A stretch of DNA of 64,000 nt from Lenzites betulinus (taxonomy: Eukaryota > Basidiomycota > Agaricomycetes > Polyporales > Polyporaceae), in contig JABYQU010000035.1 in the NCBI GenBank assembly GCA_022264855.1, positions 310,001 to 374,000 on the forward strand, read 5' to 3'. Every line of letters begins with the position of its first letter. The first letter of the stretch is position 1. The notes beneath the pieces were generated by a model. It ran no database searches and had not been told where the DNA came from. It worked only from the letters and a program-made list of their open reading frames with translations. Positions 25,440 to 62,700 of the stretch are shown one piece after another. The translations under genes and the position numbers were made by a program.

Positions 25440-27563
25440 ATGGCCACCCTTGCCCCCGCCCTCCAACACGATACCCACACCGACCCCGCGCTCCCCATCC
25501 CCGACCACCATGACTCGCCCCAGGACAAGATCAGCGCGTACTACAGCCTTGTCTTCCCCAACTTTGTCTACTATCTCCAGACTCTCACTGTCACCATCGG
25601 CCGCCGCTGTGTCCCAGCGAACACCGCGTCGGGCTCGGATAACCCCCAGGTCGACGTCGACCTTGGCCCGCTCAAGAGCGTGTCACGTCTTCACGCCAAG
25701 ATAGAGTATGACGAAGACGAGGAACGCTTCGTGCTCATTGTCGTCGGGCGGAATGGAGCTTGGGTGGACGGTGTCTGGTCCGGGAGCGGCAGTAAGGTTC
25801 CTCTGAACGACCGGTACGCTCGCCCAACTACCCCACCCGAATGACGCGTCTCATTATATGCGCAGAGCACAAATACAGATAGCATCCAGGACGTTTTTCT
25901 TCGTTCTGCCACCGTCACCCCCTCCCGAAGACTCACCCTCGCCTAGCTCACAATCATCCGGCAACCGAGCACGTTCCCCCTCGGTTGATATTACCTCCTA
26001 CTCTCCGCCGTCCTCCCTACCTTCGGACTCGCCTCCGCCAGCGAGTATTCCTGCCGCAGCGGTCAAGATCCCGCCACTGCCCGAGTCATCCCTCCCGAAC
26101 TCCAATGCCATACCACATCTCAAGTCGAACTCGAAGAAGCGCAAGAAGCCCGAAGCACCTCCACAGCCCCTACCACCCCCGAGGTTATGCCTGCGAAGCC
26201 TCCACTAACTTATGCACAACTATGTTATCGCGCTATCAAGGCTCTCGGAGGCAAGGCGTCCTTACAGGAGATCTGTCAGTGGATTAAGGATAATCACGAC
26301 TGGTACAAATACTGCAGCAAAGATTGGGAGGTGAGTCAACAGTCATGCCTCTCGCGCTAAACGTGACATTGACGTATATCTTGGTAGAGCTCTGTTCGGC
26401 ATAACTTATCCTCCAACGTGGGTTTCAAGAAACACTTACGCAGTAAAGAAGAGAAGGGAAAGGGCGCGCTCTGGATGGTGGATGATGCTCATGAGCATGC
26501 ATTCGAAGAGCTCGATGCCAGAAAGCAGAGCGCCCTGACGGGGAGTCTGACTGGTAAAGACGGCAAGGTCGGCGGAAAGAAGGGGAAAGCGGCTGTTCCT
26601 CTCGAGCCTCCACTCAGACGAAGTGTAAAAGGGGAATCGAAGGGTGTACCACTACCGCCGCCACTCACGTCTACACCCCTGGCTCTGAAGTCAACCCACT
26701 CTGCATTCCCCTCTGCAACTGCCTCCACATCCACTTCTCCGCCCCTCACCTCAAGCGCGTCACCTGTTCACGTTAAGGTTGAGCCCGCTACGGCAGCACA
26801 TGTTCCGCTACCGCCTTCATACACACAAGCCCCTACCGTTACTGCGCCGGCCGCATCTCCGCCGTATGCCAATGGCGCCTCTCCTCCTGGTCACGCCACG
26901 AGCAATGCAACCACGTCGCAAGGATTGCCTCCATCTAGTTCCGCTGTGTCTGCCGCCACCCCCTTTCCGACCATTCCGGCCTCTGTGCGAATACCCATCG
27001 TCGTCGGCCCAGTCCCTTCCTCTAACGCCGCAGGCGGGCCGCCTGCCCCACAGAAGCCCATCGTATTGCACGAGAACACGCTCGTCCTTAACCCCGAGAT
27101 ATTTTCCCACCTATCTCCACAGCATCTTCAAGACCTCGAAGCGCTCGGGGCCCAGAAGGCGATCGAGATCCTCCAAGCGTACATCGTGCGTTACTACAAG
27201 GAGAAGCTCAAGGCCGACGGTGGACGGGGACGCGGGAGGGGGCGCCCACGACGCGGCCGCGGTGGGGCGACAGGACGTGGACCTACACCAGGTGGCCCCG
27301 TACCGCGAACGGACGCGCCCAACTCCGGCCCATTCACGACAGCGCCTTTACCCCCTCGCGTTCCGAAGGCCAGTGTCTCGCCACCTGACGCAGCTTCCGC
27401 CCTCGAAGGCACCCGCGCCTCGCCCGCGGCGTCTTCGCAGCCACCAGTAGACGCGCCGTCGCCAATTGTCGTCATCGACGACGACGACGACATGCCGGAA
27501 CAGGAGCCTGCGGCAAAGCGCCGAAGATTGGACGAGCCAGTCATCGACCTCACGGGCCCATAG
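25440..27563 (+). CDS. FHA-forkhead transcription factor, Fhl1-like
   Basis: Domain order is FHA then forkhead, as in yeast Fhl1 (ribosomal-protein gene regulator). The FHA part reads LTVTIGRRCV, VDLGPLKSVSRLHAKIEYD and VGRNGAWVDGVW. A Ser/Pro linker with a basic NLS (KSNSKKRKKPE) precedes the winged helix: AKPPLTYAQLCYRAIKAL, LQEICQWIKDNHDWYKYC and, after an intron at about 26332-26388, SSVRHNLSSNVGFKKH. The C-terminal half is Pro/Ser/Ala-rich, with an AT-hook-like GRGRGRPRRGRGG and an acidic end (VIDDDDDMPEQEP). The stop is at 27561-27563. Oddity: the linker frame carrying the NLS and the forkhead frame do not connect. A C5 run at 26176-26180 would need one more base, or an unusual intron must bridge the two frames. 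This is treated in the findings. Confidence 0.86.
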
Positions 27564-47570: not shown

Positions 47571-49396
47571 TCAAACTCGGGCTCGTCGACTGGCTAGAGC
47601 AACAAGGAAGCTCCCTGCCCCTGTCGCGAGCGCGCATGTGCCCACGAAGATCTCGACAGCGCCATACCCTCCACGCCCGAACACGCCACCAAAGGACGAT
47701 CCCTTGCCGGCCTCGAGCAGCACGCCAGAGATCGCAGGCCCGACCACGGCGGACACGCCCTTGAAGAACGCGGTGCTGGCGAGTGCGAGGCCGGCGTACT
47801 CGGGCTTACCGCGCGCACAATCGGACGCCGCGCGGGGCCACGTCGAGGAGAATCCGCCGCTCTATGTCGCGTCAGTATTCGTTGCGAACCAAAGGGAAGT
47901 GCGGGGTCTGCTCACCAGCGCGCCGAAGATGATGGCGAAGAAGTAGAGCTGTGTGGCCGCGGTCGCGAGCCCCCAGAGGAGGAAGGCGACGAGGCCGCTG
48001 CCGATCGCGCTCACGCACATGATCCACGGGTACGGGAACTTGTCGCTCAGGTGGCCGAGCACGATCTGGCCGACGACGGCGGAGGAGTTAAAGAGCGAGA
48101 GCACGACCGTCGCCGTGAGCGGCGTCGACAGCGCACGCGTGAAGCTCGCGATGTACAGCGATACGGGGAAGTAGGAGAGCCCTTGCAGGAGGGTCGTCAA
48201 ACACTGCACGGGTTGTTTGAGTGACTGGGACGGTGAAGTTGACAGGAGGATGTTTGCACTCACGACGCTCCAGTAGATCGGGTTGCGCATGAAGCCGAGC
48301 TGCGGGGGGATGAAGCGCGGCCGACGCTGGTTCGCGGCCAACTTGGACACAGGCAAACGGGGGCGCATGCCAAGGAGGGCGATCCCTGCACAGAGCGTCG
48401 AGCCGATGGCCCAGATGCGCAAGGTCCACTGCAGGCCTACCTTGTCTAGCAATAGGTTCAAGACGAAGGGGAAGACGAATCCTGTTGAGCGCGGGTCAGT
48501 TCCGAAATCATGCGTGGAATATCGGCGAGTGCGAACCTCCTACACCTCCTCCGGCGAAGATGATGCCGCCAGCCAGGCCTCTCCGCTCAGAGAACCATTC
48601 GCTGAGCAACTTGATCACAGGAGCATATAGAAGCCCGCCACTGATGCCGAACCCGACACCTTGCAACAGAATAAGTTGCCACACCTACGCGAATGGTGAG
48701 TTTCACTTGATAATCAGGGGTGAATCGGTCAACTTACTTGCGTAGCAAAGCTACAGCAGAAGATGGAGATGAAGTACAGCGCGAGACCACCCCACATGCT
48801 GACTTTCATATACTCAGGATACCGATCTAGCGTCAAGCAGAACATAAGAGCCTATGAAATCCAAAGTTCAGCCCCCCGTGTTTCATTCAAGACCGTCGGA
48901 CCTACTTCGCAGTACTGCAGTGCGATGGACACGGTGCCCACCGCTGCGATCGCGACACCAGATGACTTGTCAAAAGGTGCGTGTGTCGTGTAATAATCTG
49001 AAATCGGCCCTCAGATAGTCAGACAACATTGCAGATGATGCCACCCGATGGTATATTCGATGTACCTTGGAAGATACCGTAACTGGATCATACTTTAAGA
49101 TCGGACACGTATCTCTGGAATTATACGATGCGTACGTACCTGAAACAAAAGCCCCAGATTACCATCTCCAGCACGAACGCAGAGAAGCAGAACGTCCACG
49201 CGCGCACACCGCGGTCCATGGGCGCAAGCTCATGCACCGTCACACCTTCATCGATTGCAGCTTGCAATGCAGCCTGCGACGAGTGCGCAGAGTAGACACT
49301 TGTTGGGCCTCCCGGGCCAGAGGGAGTTTGCTGCCCCGAGCTGGGCTGCACGAACGACAGTTCGTACTCCTCATTTTGTGGCCTTGGCGTTTCCAT
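47571..49396 (-). CDS. MFS transporter, monocarboxylate-permease type
   Basis: Major facilitator of the fungal MCT/Mch family. The start at 49396 gives a cytosolic N-terminus (METPRPQNEEYELSF) with DRGVRAWTFCFSAFVLEMV, the classic DGGxGW-like entry to helix 1. Other visible parts are DKSSGVAIAAVGTVSIALQY, a YPEYMKVSMWGGLALYFISI helix, LLQGVGFGISGGLLYAPV, SEWFSERRGLAGGIIFAGGG (helix 4-5 motif typical for MCTs), GLQWTLRIWAIG and LSLFNSSAVVGQIVLGHLSD. FVPTYFG-type variation is absent. The C-terminal half ends AGSFLVALASRRARV at 47571. About eight exons join in frame. Twelve helices are likely, but I did not count them rigorously. The gene's 5' flank is followed within about 255 bp by the left end of the KDZ transposon. 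Confidence 0.9.
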
Positions 49397-49650
49397 GCTG
49401 ATGACGAGTTTCTAGGTCGTCTTTCAGTACTCAGCAGCGATATCCGGCTTGTCAACTAAGAGAGGGAGAGAGGGGAGATCCAATAGGTACGAGCCAGCAG
49501 AGCTATGACTCCTATGAGTCATTATCCGCGATGGTTTTATGTATTGCGCCGTGCGACATACGGGTTCGGCCGGCGGCCCAGCGATCGACCCGTGGCGCTT
49601 GAACTTGCCGCCTGGGCTGATGTAAGTTGCAAGCTCCGAGCGTCGACTTT

Positions 49651-49750
49651 TCAGAAAGTCAGCAATTCCTGATTGGCCGATGCCCCCGCTGCCCCCGCGC
49701 CCCCCCGGCAAGCGCCGGCAGTAGCCCTGGGCATAAGCGCCCACGTGCGT
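49651..49750 (+). repeat. Left terminal inverted repeat of the KDZ element
   Basis: C-rich segment that aligns, with small gaps, to the reverse complement of about 56811-56918. A small palindrome (GACTTTTCAGAAAGTC, 49645-49660) overlaps the outer edge. Confidence 0.7.
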
Positions 49751-49812
49751 GCAGCGTCTCACCTCCCGAGTAGAAGGCTACGTCCTCAGGCATGTCATGT
49801 TGATGTTTGAAT

Positions 49813-51770
49813 ATGATTACTTTGTCTCTACGCTCTTCCATACCCCGTCTACTTTGTCTTAACACCGCTGCTCCTATGGATCATGCACATGCCACCAGTA
49901 TAAACCCTCAGGCCCTGACTGGTCAGCCAGAGTCACACAGTATGCGGTACCAGTTTATTAGCACCACGCCCGCCGGCATCACCTCCAGACCAGCTAAGAC
50001 CTGCTCGGAGCCAGGCTGTAGGTCGGGTCAGAAGCTCGCCAACATGTGCACTCGTCAGCGGTGCAAGAAGCACTGCCTTGAGCATTCAACACCATGTGGA
50101 TTCCGAGCCCACGACCAGGAGCGGAAGACCTTGGCTTCGCAGCCGGTACCTCCCCCATTAGACATGTTCAGCCTCTCACACCCCGAGCCAGCAACACCAT
50201 CAATACCAGCAATACTCAACACCGGTGTCACCGCAAATACCCAGGCAAGCAGCACCACTCTAGCGGACGTTGCACGTGTGCACCGTGTAACGATGCCAGA
50301 CACACTTAAGGCCGACTGGGACACCGCGATGAGCAGACAGCTGCAGAGGAGTCACGCAGAGGCAGAGCGCCGTGCAAATATGATTCTCGTTGAGCACACG
50401 TTCTACATTGATGCATGGGTTGTGGTATGTGTAACTGGCTCTTATAAACACGCTAGACTAACTGCTTCATTCTACAGGAGGGAGAAAAGTTGACACAGAT
50501 ACAGGTGCAAGGACCGCCTTCATGGCCCACCATCGAGCTCGCCAAACTCTCACACGTCATAGAGGACCTCAACTTGCACCATGAGCGAGCAGTTCAACGC
50601 TTCAATCTTGCAACGCGCTCCTGGGTCACCCTCCAGCTCAGCTATAAGATCAAAGTGCGTTCACAGGAGCACATCCTCATTTGGAAGATTGGCGTCCTCA
50701 GCTGTAGCGACCTCGACGACGTGTGCTTGCATGCCACAGGGACGCGTGGCCGCATGAATGTCCTTGGAAACCCACAGCGAATGGGCCCCACGCTCGCTCC
50801 AGCCCTATATCATCCTTTAGCGCAGTATTATCCACCCGCTCCTTCAGGTCTCCCCTATGGTGCTAGCATGATGGCTCCTACCTGGCTAGATCCGTCGCTT
50901 ACCACCCAGGTAGCACCCTATCAACGGCCGTGTGGGACGATGCCTCTTACAAGCACTGACTCACTAATGTCGCTGGTTACCGCTACATCTGCAATGTCGC
51001 TATGTTCTGATAGCCTTCAGTCATCACTGTCGGGCCAGTCTATGCTTGCCGGAACTACTGGGGACTCGCTAGGCAACTCTGGGTCGCTTGATGATGGTCT
51101 AGGTGTCTCTGGTTCACTTGGCGACCCTTCAGGGCCACCGGTGTTACTACCCATGCCGACATGCGCTCCTCCGCCTGCTCTAGTATCAGCGCGCACGCAG
51201 CTGCCTACTCTGGTGTATGCACAGCCGCTCGCAACACCGTCCGCCACACCTACACTTGCGTTTACTCAACCGACACCCCTGTTTCGTGTGTACCCTGCAC
51301 CGGCCATTACCGACCTCCCCCCTGCGCGCGTGACACTCAAGCGTCCACAACTACCCCAGCTTGCGCTTCCTGATCTCGATCAGCTCTGGGGATACAATCT
51401 GGTGTATGCACCCCGCACCACACAAGCGTGGCCCGCAGGGTTCTATGCTCGTGACGTCGCAAAGGCATTTGCACTCATTGGTGATGACGATGACAATCAT
51501 GGCGACGGGGCGGACCTGGAGCTTAAGGCATCATTGGCAGAACGATTCGAGTTCGTCTTTGGCAAGCCGTTCAAGTCTACAACATACCAGCGATCACGAC
51601 GTGCGTGGGCCAACTCACCGCAGGTACAGCGCGAATGGATCACCAACCTTCCTCGTGCAAAGAACTATACCTGGACGCAGGCGCGTAGGCAGCTGGATGG
51701 CTGGAGGAAGGAGAATGGTCACAAGCGTGGGCAGGGTAAGCATGCCGGTGAGGATGAGGTATCGGAGTGA
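49813..51770 (+). CDS. KDZ-element accessory protein A with Cys/His cluster
   Basis: Not a named family. Start is ambiguous between ATGs at 49813 and 49876 in the same frame. Two exons join in frame across an intron at about 50425-50477 (after DAWVV). The N-terminal part contains a compact cysteine cluster: CSEPGCRSGQ, ANMCTRQRC and KKHCLEHSTPCGF. This shares the C-x4-C-[KR]-K-H-C core with protein B of the same element. The middle has LKADWDTAMSRQLQR and SYKIKVRSQEHILIWKIG. A long Pro/Ser/Thr/Leu-rich stretch follows (about 50750-51330). The C-terminal part looks folded: LPDLDQLWGYNLVYAP, FYARDVAKAFALIGD, FEFVFGKPFKSTTYQRSRRA and NYTWTQARRQLDGW. It ends in a basic tail. The cluster and basic end suggest nucleic-acid or protein binding, but this is inference. 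It is encoded within the inverted repeats. Confidence 0.75.
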
Positions 51771-52137
51771 TCAAGTGATGTCTGTTTCTTCTATTATGTA
51801 CTTGTCTGGGTGTCCTGGCTCCGTGTATCGCTTGTGTATGATCCAAGACTCGTAATCATATGTTTTAGTATCAAATACTCTCAGTACGCATGTTCGCACA
51901 ACATGACTTCTCAAAATGGTAGATTTCGCGCCACACATATGTTCGATGCGCACATCGAACCCTCCCGGCTGGCACAAATTCAACCACCTTCTGTGACGAT
52001 TCCAGTGGAATACTTAAACCTCAGCTCAGAACGTCGCCCGCCTCCTCATTCTCTCCCTCTTATCCTACCCTAGCGACACCCTTGCGTCCCTTGTCCTTCT
52101 CCCTGCGTCTTTCTCCTCCCTCTGATTTCTCTGAACG

Positions 52138-54235
52138 ATGACAAACAGTACTGGCACAAAGTGGGGCCCTGTTAGTCGACAAACATGGCATTGCCCTCAG
52201 TGTGGACGGACGCTTGCCATACGGCAATGCCTGGATCCAAACAAGTCCAACTATCTACGCTTATTTGTAGCAGTAAGTCAATCTCTTTACCCGCTTGCAG
52301 CAGATTTCTAAAATTATTATAGTGTCAAGGCTGCCATTCAGACGCAACTCAGCATGATGTATACTTCCGGTACTGTAACAGTGCGCAGTCTTCCGACACT
52401 GCTGTAACTGCTCCTCCCCGCGCTACAAGTGCACCAGCTCCCTCAACCAGCACAACTTCTGTTCTCAACAGTCAGCGACGGCAGTGCCCCGTCTGTGGGA
52501 CTGTGCGTGTTGCAGGGCACTGTGGCCGGTCATCATGTCGCAAACACTGCGAGATCGCTGGTGGCTGTGCCTTGCATCGCTCGCTCAGCGAGGGTGACCT
52601 GGAGTTTCTTGGGGTTCGACCAGCCGCTTCCATGCCATCATCTATGTCTGTGTGCGTGTACTATATTGTTTGAATAATGCTAGCACAACTGATGTTATAT
52701 CTATAGCCCGACACCTAACGCCCTCTCACCGCAAGACGACATTCACGCAGCAATCCAAGCATCACTCGCGGACATCACACCTCAGGCTGCGGTGTCCCAC
52801 TGTGGCAGTTCAGCATCTGTGTGCGTACACTTTAATACAGTATCAATGCTAGCACGGCTAACGTATCCTCAGTCTAACACCCGAGCCAACACCCGAGCCC
52901 CTCTCTCCCCCAGCCTCTTGGCGTGCCAGGATGAAGCGTCCTGCGTCGGAGTGTAGCCAGTCAGAGTCTGTGGAAGAGCCACTACGAAAGGCGGCCCGTA
53001 CAACACTGCCCATGCCGACTACAAGATATGATGATGATATGCGTGCAGCAATCCAAGCGTCACTCACAGATATGGCACCCCAAGCATCATCTCATCGCCC
53101 TGACGCACCCGCTTCATCGTCATGGTCTCACGGACCCCCACCATCCCATGCATCATCTTCGTCTTCAACATCTAGCACCACCCGTCTCTCTCTCCCCTCT
53201 CCCCTTCACACCTCGTCTTCGTCTTCAACATCTAGCACCACCCGTCTCTCTCTCCCCTCTCCCCTTCACACCTCGTCTTCCCTGGCCTCAACATCCTATG
53301 CGTCTACTTCTGCGACTACCTCCGCTATCTCTGAGTCACACTCCTTGTCTAGCTATGATCGTGACCTGCAGGCAGCACTCCGAGCCTCCCTCTCAGATCT
53401 GTCCTGGGCACCACAGCAGTCGATTCTATCCTGCATGGACTCGGCACACCCCGGCTGTGACAATTGCGATCATACAGATACTGATGAGGATGACGCGTAT
53501 CTGGCAGCCTTGGATGCATCTCGTCGCGCAGAGGCGATGCGCAGGGAAGCTGTGGCTCAGTCAGCTGGCCTTGGGTCTGGTTCCACTCTATCCCGCGCTA
53601 GCAGCCCCTGGGGAAACCTCTCAGATAGCGGGCAATCTGAGTTCGAGTCGCTTCGTGCATCTACACTGAGGGTGCTCGCAGACCTTGACCATCTGGTATC
53701 ACCTACGCCATCAGTCGAAGAACGCCCGTACCTGGATGTCCACGCACAAGAGATGCTTGCAACTGTCCGCGCATCCATCGCCCGCATGCGCTCGGAGACT
53801 CCCGATGACAACAGCGACCTGTTTGATGAAGATGATGACGACGACGACACTGGCATGTCTGATCCTGACGCCACGCTGCGTTACGACACACCGTATCCTA
53901 CCCACATCAAGATGGAGCATGCCGAGGACCACGTCGAAGTCAAGGACCGTGTCGAGATCGATCTCACACTCGAAGACGCTGACGTTACACTCAGCAACTC
54001 ACCTATCCTCACCTTCCGTGGCAGCGAGTCGGACACCGAGTCACAACCTACCATCCAATCCCCTCCACGTCATGTCAAGATCGAACACGTTGACATTGAT
54101 CTCACCCTTGATAGCGACGACCTTCCAACAGCTGCTCCTCTCCTCCCTCGCCGGCAGCGACATCGATCCAAGATCGTGCATGTTGACATCGATCTCACGC
54201 TCGACGATGAGGAGGAGGATGGTCTCCAAGTATGA
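52138..54235 (+). CDS. KDZ-element accessory protein B: zinc clusters, UIM array and SIM array
   Basis: About 640 residues in four exons (first 52138-52272, second from 52323), all joined in frame. The N-terminus has a zinc-ribbon-like CPQCGRTLAIRQC and a CQGCHSD pair. A second cluster (CPVCGTVRVAGHC, SCRKHCEIAGGC) resembles that of protein A. Ubiquitin-interacting motifs of the A-phi-x-x-S type follow: DDIHAAIQASLAD (near 52735), DDDMRAAIQASLTD (near 53030), DRDLQAALRASLSD (near 53360) and a weaker DDAYLAALDASRR (near 53490). A Ser/Thr linker contains a perfect 60-bp tandem duplication. The acidic C-terminus carries three SUMO-interacting motifs (VEIDLTLED, VDIDLTLDSDD, VDIDLTLDDEEED). Two of these lie next to psi-K-x-E sites (IKME, VKIE). 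Inferred role: binding ubiquitin- and SUMO-modified proteins at the transposition or integration site. The stop is at 54233-54235. Confidence 0.8.
53161..53280 (+). repeat. Perfect 60-bp tandem duplication inside protein B gene
   Basis: Positions 53161-53220 and 53221-53280 are identical base for base. The repeat is in frame and duplicates 20 residues of a Ser/Thr/Leu/Pro linker. Perfect identity implies a recent event. Confidence 0.97.
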
Positions 54236-54457
54236 ATCACGCGATATGTTGCACGGTCACGTTCCTTGATTTGTAGTAGTACCTGTTATATCATTTGTGT
54301 TCTGGTCCTGCCAGCTCCAGCACTCGTCTCCTGTATTGTCGATGAATGGTGGCTTGTCAGCAAGTGCCTCCCTCAACAAGTGGTCAGAACATGCAGCGAC
54401 GACTGGAAGCAGCGCACAAAGAGTGTTTGATACAAATTACATGTCCACTGTGCTACA

Positions 54458-56587
54458 TCAATCATGGGCGGTTTGAAAGCGCAAATCTGCTCGATACCCC
54501 GGAATACACCCCTCCTGCTCCAGCTTGATAACTGTCAGCCTGTTCTTCTGCAAGATCATCTCGTCAAGGTAGAACTCATACTTCACAGCCCCCATCTCCC
54601 GTACGATTGCATGATACCCTCCGAACCATACATTTGTCTGTTCAGCGCGTGATGAGTTGAAAAACCAATTGTTGTCGTCTTTGAGAAGCTCCTGGAACAG
54701 GTGGGGGTTGCAGTGGTATGAACACTCGATGTCGGTCTTCTTATGCTTGCACTTCCAGTGAAAGACGTCGACGGGAAGGCCGATGTCAAGATGAAGGCGC
54801 TCGCCAGCACGTGCAGCGCAGTACTTGTACAGACCACAATTGTTATCGTACCAGACATATCGCGGCATGGAACCAGGAATGATATGCTTCTTCTTGATCA
54901 TGTCCTGTAAAGATGTAAGTTATGAGCGCCATAGCCCAAATAGAGAGCACGCACGACAACCTGCGGAACACTCTCTGCTCCATAGAATGTCTCACGCGAC
55001 GTGATAATCCCGCATGGGCGCACGATTAGTTGCTCGTTATGAGTCCGTCGTCGCCCAAAACGGGCTCGCACGCGTTGATTGCCCTCTGCTGTCTTGCTAG
55101 GACATGGGCCAGGCATCTCCGTTTCGATGTCTTCATCAATGGCGGCATCCGGAGCAATGGCGTCGGTGGGATGCGCAACCTGTGCCCGCTGCAGCCGTGC
55201 CCGAAGTGTGAATATGGCTTTACTTGCCGCAACGTAGTGCTCCTCCACTGCTGTGTGGAGTTCACAGGTCCGGTACCCGAGGCGGTGTGGGACAGAGCAG
55301 CCGTCGACGACACAGAAAAGCTCCCATCGCTGATGACCCGCGCACCAGCGGTCCTGAGGGGTACGTAGCTCCTGCCGGCAGTTGTGGACGCCACAACATG
55401 GACGGCCGACGTCAATGCCATCGGTAATGATACAGTCTACATAGCCTAGCACGCAGCATCCAGTTAGTCTGTGTACTGGTCTGTGTACTGTTGCGAGAGA
55501 AAGAGCACGTACGGGTGACTCCATCGGGGTCATCAAAGCGGCGGAGGCACTTCGTGCACCAATGAGCCTGTTCGGGCTGCCCTGCCCGTTGGATACGTTG
55601 CGTACGCGCCCGCATGGCCGCTATGAAGCGGTCCTTCTGATGTCCACCATGAGGCACCTCAAGGACCTGCCCTCGGTCATGGCAGTCCCGCAGTAACGCA
55701 AGGACCACAAAGCCGTCCGATACATGGGCGCCCTGAAGGCAGAAGCGCGAATCTTCGGGAAGGTTGTTCGCAAGATTTCCCATAGACCGGTGATATATAT
55801 GTGCAGAATTTGTGAAGGAGGTCCAGGAGAGAACCGCTAGCATAGTGAAGTGTTCCAGTACAGCGCGTTCAATATACTTATGGCCCGATACTTGTATGTG
55901 GTCCGGAATGCCTATGAAATACTGGCGGATGTCGTCGCGTACGACGTAGTTGGGATAGTAGATTGCTTTGCATCCTGTACAGTGCATAGTAAGCACCAAG
56001 GAGTAGTCTGATAATGAATGGTACTTACGCTTGCATGTGAGGTGTACCGCATGTGCGTTGTATGCACCCCGTGTCATGGTGAAAACCTGAACAGATGTCG
56101 GGGCATCCCACAGGCGCAAAATGTGTCCGTGATCAGCGCAGGCCGGGTCTGTGCACACACGAGTGGGTGGGTATAGCATGTGCTCCGCTTAACCTGCTAG
56201 ATTAGAATACATGATATGGTGTGAGATAATGAACGCACACAAGAACCGGTCGGACTCCTGAGTGACCCATCCATCCGCTGGCCCGTCCTCTCTGGGATCG
56301 TCTGCAAGAATGGTTGTGCCCTCTGTCCAGATCCAAGCACCAATTGCAGTCCATAGTGATTGCACGCAGTCCTGAGAGACACCAAGGCGACAGCTCATGA
56401 ACTCGAGAACATGTGGAGGAAGCTCCGCAGGGGTGTGGTCCGGGTTCCAGGTTGATGGCAGGCGATGTAGAACTACAGGCACAAGTCTTGCCGCCAGGTG
56501 TATGAACTGTACTAGAGTCCCCAAGTTAGCCCCCAAAGCACCAGGAGAAGCAGAAAGAGCATGTATAAGGGAGCTGAGTGGTAACAT
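54458..56587 (-). CDS. KDZ transposase with CxC5 and CxC6 cysteine clusters
   Basis: Cut-and-paste transposase of the KDZ superfamily. Five exons join in frame at about 56587-56239, 56187-56029, 55974-55513, 55445-54955 and 54904-54458 (635 residues). The CxC5 region contains HMLYPPTRVCTDPAC, TCKRCKAIYYPNYVV, YIERAVLEHFTML and WCTKCLRRFDDPDG. The CxC6 region contains DCIITDGIDVGRPCCGVHNC, DRWCAGHQRWELFC and TCELHTAVEEHYV. The C-terminal RNase H-fold part contains PRYVWYDNNCGLYKY, VDVFHWKCKHKKTD, CSYHCNPHLFQELLKD, NWFFNSSRAEQTNVWFGGY and VKYEFYLDEMILQKN. The Asp of WYDNNC and Glu of AEQTN are plausible catalytic acids. No stop codon or frameshift interrupts it, so it looks functional. It converges on accessory gene B with a spacer of about 220 bp. 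Confidence 0.88.
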
Positions 56588-56810
56588 CGCAGTGGTATAC
56601 AAGCAGATCAATGAACACTCCGTAACCGCCCACCATGAAGTGCCGCCACAGGCGCCCTAAGACTTGCTACCCTTGTACACAGTTACACAGTGCTCTGCAA
56701 ATCGATTTTTTGACATGAATAGATCGTACATCTGGTTTATATATGCCCTAGACTATCCGATTTCCTTGCTAATTTATGCCTCGAGCAGAATGTCAGGAAT
56801 GAGGGAGGCG

Positions 56811-56918
56811 CCACATGGGCGCCTGAGTTGCCGGCAGTTACCGGGGGGTTGCCGGGGGTCGCGGGGGCATCGGGGGGCAGCGGCAGTTCGGAGAATGCGA
56901 GTGTTCTCCGACTTTTCA
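56811..56918 (-). repeat. Right terminal inverted repeat of the KDZ element
   Basis: G-rich segment whose reverse complement aligns with 49651-49750. It also contains a local palindrome around GGAGAATGCGAGTGTTCTCC (56890-56909). Confidence 0.7.
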
Positions 56919-57403
56919 CTGGCTCATTCTACAACACCTGCTTCTTTGGGACATGCCGCTACGAGCCTGAGCGCCTCTCCGGATCTTGAGCTGCAATTTT
57001 CTGCAGTGCATGGCTGTATATTTGCCATACAAAACGATGCCCCGGCCCTTCAGCAGACCGTCTGTCTTGATTACCATCATGCTCTGTGGGGAAAGTAGGC
57101 CTGGGCAGCGTCATCGGCATGGTCAATTTCTAGCAATCTCTTTCCTCCGGTAGAATACAGTACACGGTGCCGCGGCGATCGACCGGTCACTTGGCGGGGT
57201 GGGGCTCTCATTCAAGTCGTCAACACCATTGCGCGGCGACTCGGGACATACAACTACTAGGCAGTACCTTCCAGGACCGTCCGGTACTCCCCAGTACTAG
57301 AGCTTTTCGAATGTACAAATACGTACTAACACTACGTGATTGTGTCGGATAGGTCATTAACATGTACCGTCATCCCAGACCTGTCGGCGTGGTCTGACCC
57401 AGC
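56919..57403. other. Spacer between the KDZ element and LYS12
   Basis: Right flank of the element and 3' flank of LYS12. No further gene, repeat or clear target-site duplication was recognised. Confidence 0.4.
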
Positions 57404-58950
<1,547 letters not shown>

Positions 58951-59725
58951 TTTGAAGGAGAGTGCTAGAGGAAGGTGGTTGCCCCAGGTGGAGGAAGAAG
59001 AACAGCACGGAGCGTAGGATGAGCAGAAGAGTCAATTCCTGGACTACGAAGTAGGACAGGTTTTAGGGTCAAAAATCACGCACAAAGTGACTGTAACGTC
59101 ACGCACAAATCACGGTCACACTGTGACTGTCTGTCATGCGCAAGTATTTGGTAATGTTTGGTGTCTGTTGACGGCGCTACAATTACTCACGCCACAGCTG
59201 GTCGTTTATAATCGTGCTTGTTTGTGCTAGTGCTCCACATTCCGATCGCCTCTGCTACGCACTTTTCGTAACCCTCATATATACCAGTGTAGCGATCATT
59301 TATGGAGCGCGACAGCGGTTCAGGTAGGTCCCACATTGCGAGATATTTCAAAATCTCACAATCGCCGTCAGATGTAGACTCTAAAGGGTTGCTTACCCCC
59401 CGCCCTATCCTCCACAACTATAATGCCGCAGTGTCGCGCAGTATGTTTCATCTCTTCGTCGAAGTTCCCTACTAATTGGTTGTTAGATACATCCCTTGGT
59501 GACGAAACTATCAAGGGAGCGGAGAGCGTCCTTCATCACAGTACGAGCAATCCATGCATTCGCCTACGTTGACGCTAATCTTTCCCTAGGTTTGCCGACC
59601 CGTGGGGTGGACATCGGGAGCTCTCCGTGTGCTGTTTCGCCGGGGCGCCTTTGTGAGTCTCTTCGTCTCTCTTTTTTGGCGGCGTTACTCATTTTCTACC
59701 TACGACCTTCTACGCATGACCTTAA
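58951..59725. other. Region between LYS12 and the Helitron frame
   Basis: LYS12 promoter (58951 to about 59150), including short repeats TCACGCACAAA and GTGACTGT near 59077-59130. It is followed by sequence that probably belongs to the Helitron 5' part. A 76-codon minus-strand frame at 59187-59417 looks protein-like but has no ATG start and no recognised domain. The exact Helitron 5' end was not found. Confidence 0.4.
59029..59034 (-). promoter_or_regulatory. Gcn4/Cpc1-type TGACTC element upstream of LYS12
   Basis: On the LYS12 strand the sequence TGACTC lies 79 bp upstream of the start codon. Fungal lysine genes are commonly under general amino acid control through this motif. A six-base match alone is weak evidence. 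Confidence 0.3.
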
Positions 59726-62700
59726 ATCGTCTCACAATGTTTCGTTTTGTCCTATCGACGACTCATCGATGCATTGTGCTATTCACCACCATGTTGTTGT
59801 GCCGTGGACGTGAATATAGCTCTGGATGCCATGTATATGGTTATCGAAGCCGGCGAAGTCCGCGCGGTGCCTCGGCGGATTACCCGGGCGCATATGGATA
59901 GTATGTTCCAGTACCGGTTAGCGACAGATGCACGCAGTGGGTCGTATAACGCTGAGGCTGGCGATCTAGTTGTTGCGGCCTCGTTATCTGTTGTCTTAGC
60001 ATTGTATGGACATTGGCGAATTGGCCAAGTCAGAGGAATCGCTGCATTGCACCGAGTAAGTGTCGGGTTTCGTGAGAAGCATGTCGAGGTCTTACAGAAA
60101 TTGCATACTCATGTATGCAGTTCTGTATGCTCTACATTCAAATATGTCTTCCACATTCTGGGAAATCCCCGGCCAACCTGCGACCCTGGAAGACATCGTA
60201 CCGTTTTCCCAGACAGTGTTGAAGCTCCTGCTGTTGTATCTTCGCAGCCGTCTCCGGCGTTAACGTTCAATTGCAGCGGGCCTATGACGTCAGTTCCCCC
60301 TGCACCTGAAGAGGACACCGCCAACTTCGACTATCTAGAAATAGCAAATATGGAATTACGGCGAGCTATTATCTCTGAATGGCAGCAAACGATGAGCACC
60401 GCAGCACTAACAACAGTCGTGTGCGCCGTGTGCGCTCGGGACACGAATATTTCGAGTATTGTGTTTGTTAAACCGAGGAAAGTCGATTTCGCCCTTCTTT
60501 GTAATCCACTGTTGCCAGACAATCTCCAGCCCTCGTCATATAATCGTGTGGCATATGGCGGTGCTATATTGCACCCTAAAGGTCTCACCAACATCGACGG
60601 CTTGGGGGACTTGCGTATATGTAAAGAATGTCGATCTGATCTCGCGCGTCCGCGCATGCCCCGTTTTGCGTTAGCCAATTGGCTCTACTATGGATTGGAG
60701 AAGCTTCCTAACAGTGTGAGTGATGCTTTTCGCCGAGCAACACCTGTGGAGAGGATATTAGTTTCTCGTGCTAGGGCAAGCAAGATATCTTATAAATTTA
60801 GCGAGCTCCCCGGACATGTTATGTACAAGAAGCCGGCAGTCACTTCGCAGCGTTGTGTGAAGGGTAATATCGCCATCCATCCGCAGGATACAACTTCTTT
60901 TAATGAAGTTTTGCCCCCGTCTGCGGAATCAATCAGGGATACCGTGTGTGCTGTGTTTGTAGGACAAACTAAACCTGACTTGCAGACGATCAGACAGCTC
61001 ACGCCGATACTTGTAAGAAAGTCTCGAGTCAGAATTATGATCGAGTTTCTTGTGGCGCATAATCCGCACTACCGTGTCGGTGAGACTTTCAAGGGGTTTA
61101 GCAAGAGCAATCTGGACAACCTCTTTGGTCCAGGAACTCAAGGTGTTGATGAGGACGTGCTTTGCTCAATGGAAATTGGTCATATCGGTCGCAGCGACGG
61201 CGTTGAAGGTGCTACTAGCAGTTATATCCCGGGTCAAGAGGACGGTCCTGCTAAAGATGAAGAGGGGGTGCTGATGGAGAACGTCGGATACACGGATAAT
61301 GACGATACGCCAGTGAACTATAGACGCATGACTATGGTGGCGCTCGCGCATTGTTTGGCCGACGGACGGTTCCTGAAGGTCCAAGCAGGTTCTAAACTTA
61401 TACCCGATTTTCGCAATCCGAACTTGCTGTCATGGCTGTTCCCTCATCTTGATCCTTGGGGCATCGGAGGATTCCACAAGCACGAGCGGTTTACGCCGCT
61501 AACTATGGCTCAGCAGTTGAAGTATTTACTATCGGTGCACGACTCACCGTTCAGAAAGGACCCAGATTTCGCCTTCGTATATTATAATATCCTGCAGAAG
61601 AAAGCGGTTTATGATTCTGTCACGTTTCGTGTTTCTGGTCACGAACGTGAAAGCGTCGTTCAACAACTATTGAAAGTCGACGTGGTCGTGCTGAATAGGT
61701 TGATCGCGGCATTCAAGGAGAACCCACATTATAAGTGTAAGAACGCGGAAGAGAGTTCCATATTGAAGCTGCTTCTTAAAGTGAATGCCGTCTCGCATGA
61801 TTTGCCTGGGTCTAATGGGTACAAGATCGCCCTGAGAAATCAAATTCGGGGATTAATAAATGACGAAGGTACACCGACGTTGTTTATCACGCTCAATCCG
61901 TCCGATAGGGATCACCCTCTGGTGCGATTGTATGCTGGGGACGAAATCGTGTTAGAAGATGCCATGCAAGGGGAGGAACTCAGTCGATGGAAGCGCACTA
62001 TATATGCGGCAGAAAATCCTGCAGCGTGCGCGAAGTTCTTTGATACAATGATGACTAACTTCATTAGTACCGTTTTGCGGTATGGGAGATCTGGAAGAGG
62101 ACTGTTTGGTAAGTGTAAAGCATATTATGGCACGGTAGAAGCGCAAGGCAGAGGTACATTACATTGTCATATGCTGATTTGGTTGGAAGGACATCCGTCG
62201 CCTCAGGCTCTTCGTGATAAGATGGGGGGATCAGAGTCGTTTAAGCAGAACATGTTTCAGTGGTTAGAGTCAATTATAAAGTGTGAGCTTCCCAGCACAG
62301 CAAACGTCGTGGTAGAAGAGAAAGGGCACCCACTGGAGAAACCGCACCGCGCAGACGAAACCGGCAATCTTCATCCCGGCGCCATTCCCGCTCCGATGAT
62401 TTCTGCGTACGAAAGAGAAGAGGACTTTGAAGCTGCATTTGAGAATTTTGTGACGGAGCTAGTGAAAGAGTTTAACTGGCATGAGCATCAATCAACGTGC
62501 TTTAAGTATGTACCTAATGGTTTACTACCAGCGGATATGGCTCAACGCGACGCCCTTTGTCGGATGCGGATCGATGGCTCCACAGTGCCGAAAACATTTA
62601 TTGATGAGGAGAGTGGAGGGATTGTTCTGCGTCGGCTACATCCTCGAATAGCTAATTACAATGATTTGGTGATTTTCTTGATAAAATCAAACATGGAAAT

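What the first reader, a model, noticed from the sequence alone, without database searches (positions are those of the whole stretch)
52138..54235. Transposon-encoded protein combining UIM and SIM arrays (RAP80-like domain logic)
Protein B of the KDZ element carries three good and one weak ubiquitin-interacting motif followed by three near-identical SUMO-interacting motifs of the form V-[DE]-I-D-L-T-L-[DE]. Two SIMs have adjoining psi-K-x-E SUMO-acceptor sites. Known hosts of paired SIM and UIM modules, such as RAP80, read mixed SUMO-ubiquitin chains at DNA breaks; SUMO-targeted ligases use SIM arrays. A mobile element carrying such a reader could use it to recruit repair, to stabilise or remove transposase, or to counter SUMO-linked silencing. 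I know of no described KDZ cargo of this kind. The motif calls are read directly; the role is inference.
Basis: partly seen in the sequence, partly recalled or inferred. Interest (0 to 1): 0.88.

Follow-up and report, generated by a model that had tools for sequence, protein, structure and literature searches.

The report
Transposon gene with ubiquitin/SUMO reader motifs
A mobile DNA element in a wood-rotting mushroom carries, beside its probable transposase, a gene whose protein keeps short motifs that should grip ubiquitin and SUMO, the tags cells use to mark proteins at damaged or silenced DNA, which suggests the element reads the host's tags to help it move or survive.

Summary
Window 52138-54235 is a four-exon gene (646 aa): two N-terminal zinc modules, three good and one weaker ubiquitin-interacting motif (UIM), then three V-[DE]-I-D-L-T-L-[DE] motifs of SUMO-interacting type (SIM). 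New here: (1) the gene lies inside a 7.26-kb element with ~97-bp inverted repeats and an 8-bp target duplication, beside gene A and a CxC5/CxC6 protein, probably the transposase. (2) Two further TIR- and TSD-bounded elements carry A, B and that protein; their B proteins, about 29-30% identical to the window's, keep zinc ligands, UIM core and IDLT. In 4 of 5 gene-length genomic B genes a psi-K-x-E site lies one residue before a SIM. (3) A fourth bounded element has the CxC5/CxC6 gene without B, so B looks like clade-specific cargo. (4) A six-frame codon-pattern search of 37.4 Mb finds the motif 5 times: 4 in B genes, 1 in a host SNM1A/Pso2-like repair nuclease. Corrections: Pfam's KDZ domain is not detected; RAP80 order is reversed; the CxC5/CxC6 gene is present at 3 of 6 B loci; the SIM core is non-canonical by a common pattern. 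Binding and function are untested.

The parts
49644..49651 (.). Left 8-bp target site duplication CGACTTTT (the identical stretch runs to 10 bp, CGACTTTTCA)
   Evidence: Same string at 56909; 8 bp chosen because CAGAAAGTCAGC starts the element in the copies on C52 and C60 too
49652..49748 (+). Left terminal inverted repeat
   Evidence: Local alignment with the right end scores 56, best of 500 shuffles 37
49876..51770 (+). Gene A, exons 49876-50424 and 50478-51770 (intron read by eye at GT-AG), zinc-finger companion protein of about 613 aa; finger C-x4-C-x9-C-x4-C-x2-HC-x6-C at about 50002
   Evidence: no Pfam family (on a near-complete model); relatives at C52, C54, C63, C19 and a fragment at C60
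52138..54235 (+). Gene B, exons 52138-52272, 52323-52651, 52707-52820, 52873-54235, 646 aa: the ubiquitin/SUMO motif protein
   Evidence: homologues
52192..52376 (+). Zinc module 1 of B, GRF-like zinc ribbon (spans intron 1)
   Evidence: Only sub-threshold GRF matches, in relatives P0003 and P0005 (E 2 and 0.35); two of its Cys invariant in the alignment
52485..52577 (+). Zinc module 2 of B, CPVC...C...C..HC..GGC..H finger, similar in layout to the finger of gene A
52726..52779 (+). UIM 1 (SPQDDIHAAIQASLADIT), in its own exon; DNA 75% identical to UIM 2 over 53 bases, so probably a duplicated exon
53024..53077 (+). UIM 2 (RYDDDMRAAIQASLTDMA), the Pfam UIM_2 match
53351..53404 (+). UIM 3 (SYDRDLQAALRASLSDLS)
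53483..53536 (+). UIM 4, weaker (DEDDAYLAALDASRRAEA)
53906..53917 (+). psi-K-x-E site IKME, 11 residues before SIM 1
   Evidence: pattern only
53951..53983 (+). SIM-type motif 1, VEIDLTLEDAD
54074..54085 (+). psi-K-x-E site VKIE, one residue before SIM 2
   Evidence: same arrangement in C54, C19, C52 and both T. pubescens proteins
54089..54121 (+). SIM-type motif 2, VDIDLTLDSDD
54182..54220 (+). SIM-type motif 3, VDIDLTLDDEEED, at the C-terminus
   Evidence: a C-terminal IDLT is invariant in the five-copy alignment
54458..56587 (-). Gene C, CxC5/CxC6 protein, 635 aa, probable transposase; exons 56587-56239, 56187-56029, 55974-55513, 55445-54955, 54904-54458
   Evidence: Pfam CxC5 E 1.1e-30, CxC6 E 2.8e-18; candidate D, D, E conserved in 6 of 6 genomic copies; exons, stop
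56811..56908 (-). Right terminal inverted repeat
56909..56916 (.). Right 8-bp target site duplication CGACTTTT

Best explanation
Gene B is an accessory protein encoded by a TIR-bounded DNA transposon of the CxC5/CxC6 group. SHOWN: it lies inside the element; it recurs with A and the CxC5/CxC6 gene in three bounded elements; it has two cysteine-rich (zinc-type) modules and a long Ser-rich tail in which UIM-type stretches and an IDLT motif, usually with a SUMO-acceptor consensus next to it, are better conserved than the rest. INFERRED: the zinc modules hold B on element DNA or on the transposase complex (A has a similar finger), while UIMs and SIM dock that complex onto ubiquitin- and SUMO-modified host proteins. 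The most likely purpose is to meet the SUMO/ubiquitin-marked repair response at the cut or gapped DNA that excision and insertion leave, so that ends are processed and sealed. SIM-guided SUMOylation of B itself at psi-K-x-E may add a switch.
For: TIRs plus an exact 8-bp TSD at 4 of 6 CxC5/CxC6 loci: C38 (window), C54, C63, C50; A and B inside three of them. B copies 28-55% identical pairwise share, among their invariant residues, the UIM core A-I-x-A-S and I-D-L-T. In the three short copies motif columns are identical at 29 of 51, other tail columns at 24 of 161, Fisher p 1e-8; I chose the motif columns. In 4 of 4 B pairs compared, synonymous differences are near saturation (pS 0.72-0.755) while pN is 0.28-0.45. 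A five-sequence AlphaFold2 model of P0004 puts helices at 228-245, 290-307, 368-381 and a strand at 404-411, on UIM1 (231-243), UIM2 (293-305), the WDPALLASIRAAN stretch (366-378) and the SIM (403-414); it also draws three low-confidence helices at 157-183. IDLT stood in 12 of 24 clones (22 distinct) selected for yeast SUMO binding and the authors call it a SIM (PMC4000234, passages). By the codon pattern the only non-B gene with the full motif is a DCLRE1A/SNM1A homologue. The UIM exon looks duplicated in the window copy.
Against: No binding data. The SIM strings fail a standard [VI][VIL]x[VIL] core pattern in 6 of 7 proteins; only C52 has VIDL[TA], twice. Pfam's UIM models pass their cut-off in 2 of 8 B-family sequences scanned (window B, P0002) and are silent in the short copies. 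Neither A nor B was detected in a bounded CxC5/CxC6 element (C50), so B is not essential to this group. C19 and C52 keep open B genes without a detectable CxC5/CxC6 gene. DNA or transposase binding by the zinc modules is not shown; no PDB relative by sequence or by fold of a poor model.
Confidence: 0.55

Rival explanations
1. Anti-silencing reader: B sits on element chromatin and uses SIM/UIM to bind, titrate or remove SUMO-linked silencing factors, or to resist SUMO-targeted removal of the transposase, rather than to recruit repair.
For: Transposons in Agaricomycetes carry TET/JBP dioxygenases thought to counter silencing (PMC12730594, abstract, passages and one section); transposons elsewhere carry Ulp1 and OTU proteases (PMC2836005, passages). 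The motif evidence is the same as for repair.
Against: Nothing in the sequence points to silencing targets; the one host sharer of the full motif is a repair nuclease.
Confidence: 0.25
2. B is mainly a regulated substrate: the acidic IDLT tail and psi-K-x-E sites serve B's own SUMOylation, and the UIM-like helices drive coupled monoubiquitination or oligomerisation, controlling the amount of transposase complex.
For: A psi-K-x-E site lies one residue before a SIM in 4 of 5 gene-length genomic B genes (six residues in C63) and in both T. pubescens proteins.
Against: Does not by itself explain several UIMs and repeated SIMs.
Confidence: 0.2
3. The IDLTL strings are not SIMs but an LxLxL-type (EAR-like) co-repressor docking motif or a generic acidic activation patch (motif class recalled).
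For: In the window the spacing V-x-I-x-L-x-L alternates like LxLxL and misses the canonical SIM core.
Against: C54 has IEIDLTSDSD, which breaks LxLxL but keeps IDLT; C52 has VIDLAIDDD and VIDLTLDDD, canonical SIM cores; IDLT is a selected SUMO binder.
Confidence: 0.12
4. A domesticated host gene pair that the element happens to flank.
For: Open A/B pairs without a detectable CxC5/CxC6 gene at C19 and C52.
Against: A and B lie between TIRs with TSD at three independent places; the C52 pair still has the left TIR.
Confidence: 0.05

Closest known systems
KDZ (Kyakuja-Dileera-Zisupton) DNA transposons, Zisupton/Dileera branch
   Same: CxC5/CxC6 cysteine clusters are named for association with KDZ transposases; TIRs and 8-bp TSD as stated for Zisupton (PMC12730594, passages)
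   Different: Pfam KDZ domain PF18758 not detected; companion genes A and B; TET/JBP search of this genome found nothing (in which the control genomes were silent too)
CxC5/CxC6 ORFs of Pleurotus ostreatus (6,792-bp insert in MSH4, ORF of 739 aa)
   Same: CxC5+CxC6 protein of similar length in a multicopy 6.8-kb fragment; no KDZ-type transposon within expected distance (PMC7641404, passages and one section)
   Different: Those authors tied the fragment to Copia retrotransposons; the terms 'inverted repeat' and 'target site' do not occur in that paper's main text; here four bounded elements show a DNA-transposon structure
Transposons with Ulp1 or OTU protease domains (Ginger1, Mutator/Kaonashi, Helitron)
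   Same: Mobile DNA carrying ubiquitin/SUMO-system modules; a link to repair after transposition was proposed (PMC2836005, PMC6117577, passages)
   Different: Those are protease domains; B has only predicted tag-binding motifs and no protease domain in Pfam scans
RAP80 (UIMC1)
   Same: SIM plus tandem UIMs in one protein (PMC12751080, passages)
   Different: No sequence match in the PDB search of B; B has UIMs first and SIMs last, UIMs 26-91 residues apart, several SIMs, N-terminal zinc modules (RAP80 order recalled)
SNM1A/Pso2 (DCLRE1A) repair nucleases
   Same: Host homologue at C25 holds EVDIDLTLDDAESPDD just before a CPIC...HVDGC finger that reads by eye as UBZ; human SNM1A has a UBZ and a PIP box and interacts with PIAS1 (PMC7607226, passages)
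   Different: No nuclease domain in B; only the short motif is shared; Pfam called no UBZ in the exon scanned

Membership tests
KDZ transposon superfamily | KDZ catalytic domain (PF18758) | tested here: not met
   No KDZ match for the 635-aa protein with reporting up to E 10; none on contig C38 among 77 genome matches (counts are lower bounds)
KDZ transposon superfamily | CxC-type cysteine clusters | tested here: met
   CxC5 E 1.1e-30, CxC6 E 2.8e-18
KDZ transposon superfamily | TIRs and 8-bp TSD (Zisupton type) | tested here: met
   4 of 6 CxC5/CxC6 loci; C26 and C17 show no TIR above 10 shuffles each in the DNA held
DDE/RNase H-like transposase | Catalytic D, D, E | tested here: inconclusive
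   D of ITDG, D of WYDNNC and E of SSxAEQ (TSICEET in C50) are kept in 6 of 6 copies, but the assignment is by eye and no fold was obtained for gene C
UIM | Profile match above curated cut-off | tested here: met
   For window B. In the family 2 of 8 sequences pass (window B, P0002); P0001 is below; P0003, P0004, P0005, C54, C63 have no UIM match; P0005 and C63 are the same gene
UIM | phi-x-x-A-x-x-x-S with acidic patch, helical | tested here: met
   2-4 hits in each of 7 proteins, at most 30 of 5000 shuffles reach the observed number; helices modelled in P0004
SIM | Four-residue core with at least three hydrophobics next to acidic residues | tested here: not met
   Window motifs give 0 canonical hits; met only in C52 of 7 proteins. 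IDLT itself is a selected SUMO binder
RAP80 | SIM N-terminal to closely spaced tandem UIMs (order recalled) | tested here: not met
   Order reversed, UIMs 26-91 residues apart
SUMO-targeted ubiquitin ligase | RING domain | tested here: not met
   No RING in Pfam scans of window B (E up to 1) and of 7 relatives (E up to 10)
RAP80 / STUbL / SIM / UIM | Measured ubiquitin or SUMO binding | not testable with these tools
   Needs bench work

The most novel reading that the evidence does not exclude
CxC5/CxC6 elements are a DNA transposon lineage of their own, and one clade encodes a dedicated mixed ubiquitin/SUMO reader that copies the docking motif of the host repair nuclease SNM1A/Pso2 to bring transposition intermediates into the host's SUMO/ubiquitin-marked repair sites.
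Probability: 0.25. Interest if true: 0.87.

Novelty: new variant of a known kind. Interest (0 to 1): 0.72.

Why it matters
Transposons are known to carry protease domains of the SUMO and ubiquitin systems. A conserved element gene with predicted reader motifs for both tags would make the old proposal that these pathways are built into transposition directly testable, in a protein whose motifs can be mutated one by one. It also gives CxC5/CxC6 proteins a defined mobile element with TIRs and TSDs, which the Pleurotus ostreatus MSH4 study could not assign.

Tried and rejected
Rejected: chance low-complexity motifs (shuffles; paralogue conservation); host gene next to an element (TIR/TSD); LxLxL co-repressor motif (broken in C54). 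'Always beside the transposase' was tested and is false (3 of 6 B loci). I had also read, by eye, A-like proteins beside the CxC5/CxC6 genes of C50 and C26; a check by BLASTP gives no support at C50 (best E 0.24; the resembling stretch E 5.8) and only a weak 51-residue match at C26 (E 2e-4 for that single comparison), and the genome search with A listed neither.

Led nowhere: AlphaFold2 on P0004 alone (mean pLDDT 34.5); Foldseek of the five-sequence model (20 matches, 0 at E <= 0.001); PDB sequence search of B (0 matches); viral contig scan (39 pattern stretches, no relative); protein search with C52 residues 1-145 found only its own record among 43 candidates. The first two protein searches scored only the 7978 and 7987 candidates sharing most words, probably crowded by Ser-rich proteins, and together gave 5 proteins, so absence of B from other fungi is not shown. 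TET/JBP search found nothing, but its controls were silent too. The ubiquitin-like family search gave 13 matches that do not separate SUMO from ubiquitin. dS is saturated, so no dN/dS ratio is claimed. No TIR above 10 shuffles at C26 and C17; the C19 best inverted repeat scored 37 without a control and was not accepted.

Rows dropped: weak genome hits for B-type queries (C32 E 0.0019, C44 E 0.49, C21 E 2.5) were not counted as B loci. C80 is counted as a B locus though only a fragment. A looser UIM pattern also gives incidental hits in C50 (61602), C17 (425582), C54 (951362) and C63 (108782) outside B.

Not in print: no paper describing a transposon gene with UIM and SIM was seen in searches of the open-licence library (listings, plus passages of the papers named in the report); the KDZ founding papers were not read.
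Full report
WHAT THE GENOME IS. The window is contig C38:310001-374000 of a 37.4-Mb, 108-contig genome. Three proteins found by search lie on contigs of 329589, 598728 and 222020 bases, the lengths of C52, C19 and C63, and are named Lenzites betulinus C2E23DRAFT entries, so the window is almost certainly Lenzites betulinus, a polypore of the Polyporales.

THE GENE. Gene B splices from four exons with GT-AG introns into 646 aa. It opens with a GRF-like zinc ribbon (Pfam GRF only sub-threshold, in relatives) and a second finger C-P-V-C ... C ... C-R-K-H-C ... G-G-C-x2-H, similar in layout to the finger of gene A. Then comes a Ser-rich tail with four UIM-type motifs and three V-[DE]-I-D-L-T-L-[DE] motifs. 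UIM_2 passes Pfam's cut-off. The DNA of the first UIM, which has its own exon, is 75% identical to that of the second over 53 bases, and the introns on its two sides share sequence at their donor ends, so the array probably grew by exon duplication; the C52 copy has no such exon.

THE ELEMENT. About 97-bp imperfect inverted repeats bound 49652-56908; their alignment scores 56 while 500 shuffles reach at most 37. They are flanked by CGACTTTT on both sides (49644-49651 and 56909-56916; the identity runs to 10 bp). Inside are A (+), B (+) and C (-). C, 635 aa, matches CxC5 and CxC6 strongly but shows no KDZ match. Across the 6 genomic CxC6 loci candidate D, D and E residues are kept in 6 of 6, so C is probably the transposase; the assignment is by eye. 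Three other loci have the same kind of ends: C54 945821-956189 with TSD GAGATCAC, C63 104614-115570 with TSD GCATTTGG, and C50 59171-65474 with TSD AGAAGTTG. So 4 of 6 CxC5/CxC6 loci are TIR- and TSD-bounded; for C26 and C17 no TIR stood above 10 shuffles each in the DNA held. The 8-bp TSD and TIRs agree with Zisupton, not with Kyakuja (7 bp, no TIR) (PMC12730594, passages and section 3.2.1).

WHO HAS B. Six B loci were found: C38 (window), C54, C63, C52, C19 and a fragment on C80. Three of six sit in a bounded element with A and C (C38, C54, C63). C52 has A, B and the left TIR but no C hit; C19 has A and B and no accepted TIR in 9.5 kb. Of six CxC5/CxC6 loci, three have B. Those three C proteins are 62-69% identical to each other over a stretch of about 118 residues near the C-terminus and 45-53% to the other three, and group in a small tree (support 0.856). 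In the C50 element neither the genome searches nor a pattern scan show A or B; the scan's one hit, a loose UIM string at 61602, has one acidic residue and no finger near it. An A-like protein that I read there by eye is not borne out by BLASTP. B, like A, is therefore best read as cargo of one clade, gained there or lost elsewhere.

CONSERVATION. The window's B is 29.7, 29.0, 28.4 and 44.8% identical to the copies on C54, C63, C19 and C52 over aligned columns. Invariant columns are mainly cysteines, histidines and neighbours of the two zinc modules, the UIM core A-I-x-A-S, an L-A-x-x-R helix and I-D-L-T. In the three short copies motif columns are identical at 29 of 51 against 24 of 161 elsewhere in the tail (Fisher p 1e-8; I chose the motif columns). 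In 4 of 4 pairs compared, synonymous sites are near saturation (pS 0.72-0.755) while pN is 0.28-0.45. A psi-K-x-E site one residue before a V/I-[DE]-I-D-L-T motif occurs in C38, C54, C19 and C52 (4 of 5 gene-length genomic genes; in C63 six residues lie between) and in both T. pubescens proteins; 0 of 5000 shuffles give such a pair (gap up to 8) in any of the 7 (pattern written after seeing the motif). A five-sequence AlphaFold2 model of P0004 is poor overall (mean pLDDT 46) but places helices on both UIMs (block pLDDT 85 and 78) and on the WDPALLASIRAAN stretch (78), and a strand on the SIM (54); it also draws low-confidence helices at 157-183.

HOW SURE ARE THE MOTIFS. Against: Pfam UIM models pass in 2 of 8 B-family sequences; the window's SIM strings fail the usual hydrophobic-core pattern, which only C52 of 7 proteins meets (VIDLA, VIDLT). 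For: IDLT stood in 12 of 24 clones (22 distinct) selected for yeast SUMO binding and is called a SIM by the authors, who cite 5-6 uM for human SUMO with an IDLT SIM peptide (PMC4000234, passages). A codon pattern for [VI]-[DE]-I-D-[LF]-T-[LF]-[DE], without Val GTG, hits 5 places in the whole genome, 0 for the reversed control: three in window B, one in C52 B, and one in a host gene on C25; the C54, C63 and C19 motifs differ in their last residues and do not match it. The C25 gene matches human DCLRE1A/SNM1A structures (E 7e-20) and reads ...DEVDIDLTLDDAESPDDSKDAVESCPICDKQL..., that is, the motif just before a finger that looks like a UBZ (by eye across an intron; Pfam gave no call). Human SNM1A has UBZ and PIP motifs and interacts with the SUMO ligase PIAS1 (PMC7607226, passages). 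The C-terminal string of a transposon gene thus recurs in a host repair nuclease next to a probable ubiquitin-binding finger; this may be mimicry or convergence.

MECHANISM. Shown: gene, element, conservation. Inferred from the families: UIMs bind ubiquitin and SIMs bind SUMO. Inferred further: B bridges the transposition complex to SUMO/ubiquitin-marked host proteins, most likely the repair response at excision and insertion gaps; anti-silencing or control of B's own stability are close rivals. Transposons with Ulp1 or OTU proteases, and the proposal that they aid repair after transposition, are in print (PMC2836005, passages), as are plant Kaonashi elements (PMC6117577, passages); SUMOylation of HMGXB4, a host factor of Sleeping Beauty, is also in print (PMC10138897, listing and passages). 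Fish Zisupton proteins with an F-box are mentioned in PMC12062965 (passages). A transposon-borne protein with UIM and SIM motifs was not seen in searches.

'KDZ' should be 'CxC5/CxC6 element, KDZ domain not detected'. In Pleurotus ostreatus the CxC5/CxC6 ORFs were likewise found apart from KDZ-type transposons and were tied to Copia elements (PMC7641404, passages and one section); the four bounded elements here suggest instead a DNA transposon. RAP80 is a likeness of logic only.

Noticed in passing
G000 contig C25:262200-264400 (L057): Host SNM1A/Pso2 (DCLRE1A) homologue carries EVDIDLTLDD, the same SIM-type string as gene B, just before a CPIC...HVDGC finger, plus a PIP-like N-terminus (QASTLLDFF) and an IIVIDSDEDED SIM-like string.
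   Followed up: partly
window 26388-27563: ORF that looks like a forkhead transcription factor (by eye) with two canonical SIM-like strings, PIVVIDDDDD and PVIDLTGP.
   Followed up: no
C54 about 948263 (-), L051: A further B-like finger (CAITPCARPKVNKACWRGCCRRHCLSQGGC) between A and B of the C54 element; B there is on the opposite strand to A, unlike in the window.
   Followed up: no
C50:59171-65474 (L055, L028, L018): Bounded CxC5/CxC6 element with TSD AGAAGTTG in which neither A nor B was detected.
   Followed up: yes
C52:1-9999 (L049): A/B pair with left TIR but no CxC5/CxC6 hit; open B gene with two canonical VIDL[TA] SIM cores.
   Followed up: partly
window 47862-49400 and 57400-59030: The element lies between an MFS-transporter-like gene and a homoisocitrate-dehydrogenase-like gene (both by eye), useful anchors for an empty site in related species.
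   Followed up: no
genome-wide: 77 KDZ-domain (PF18758) matches listed elsewhere in this genome, none on the window's contig; several with identical scores on different contigs.
   Followed up: no
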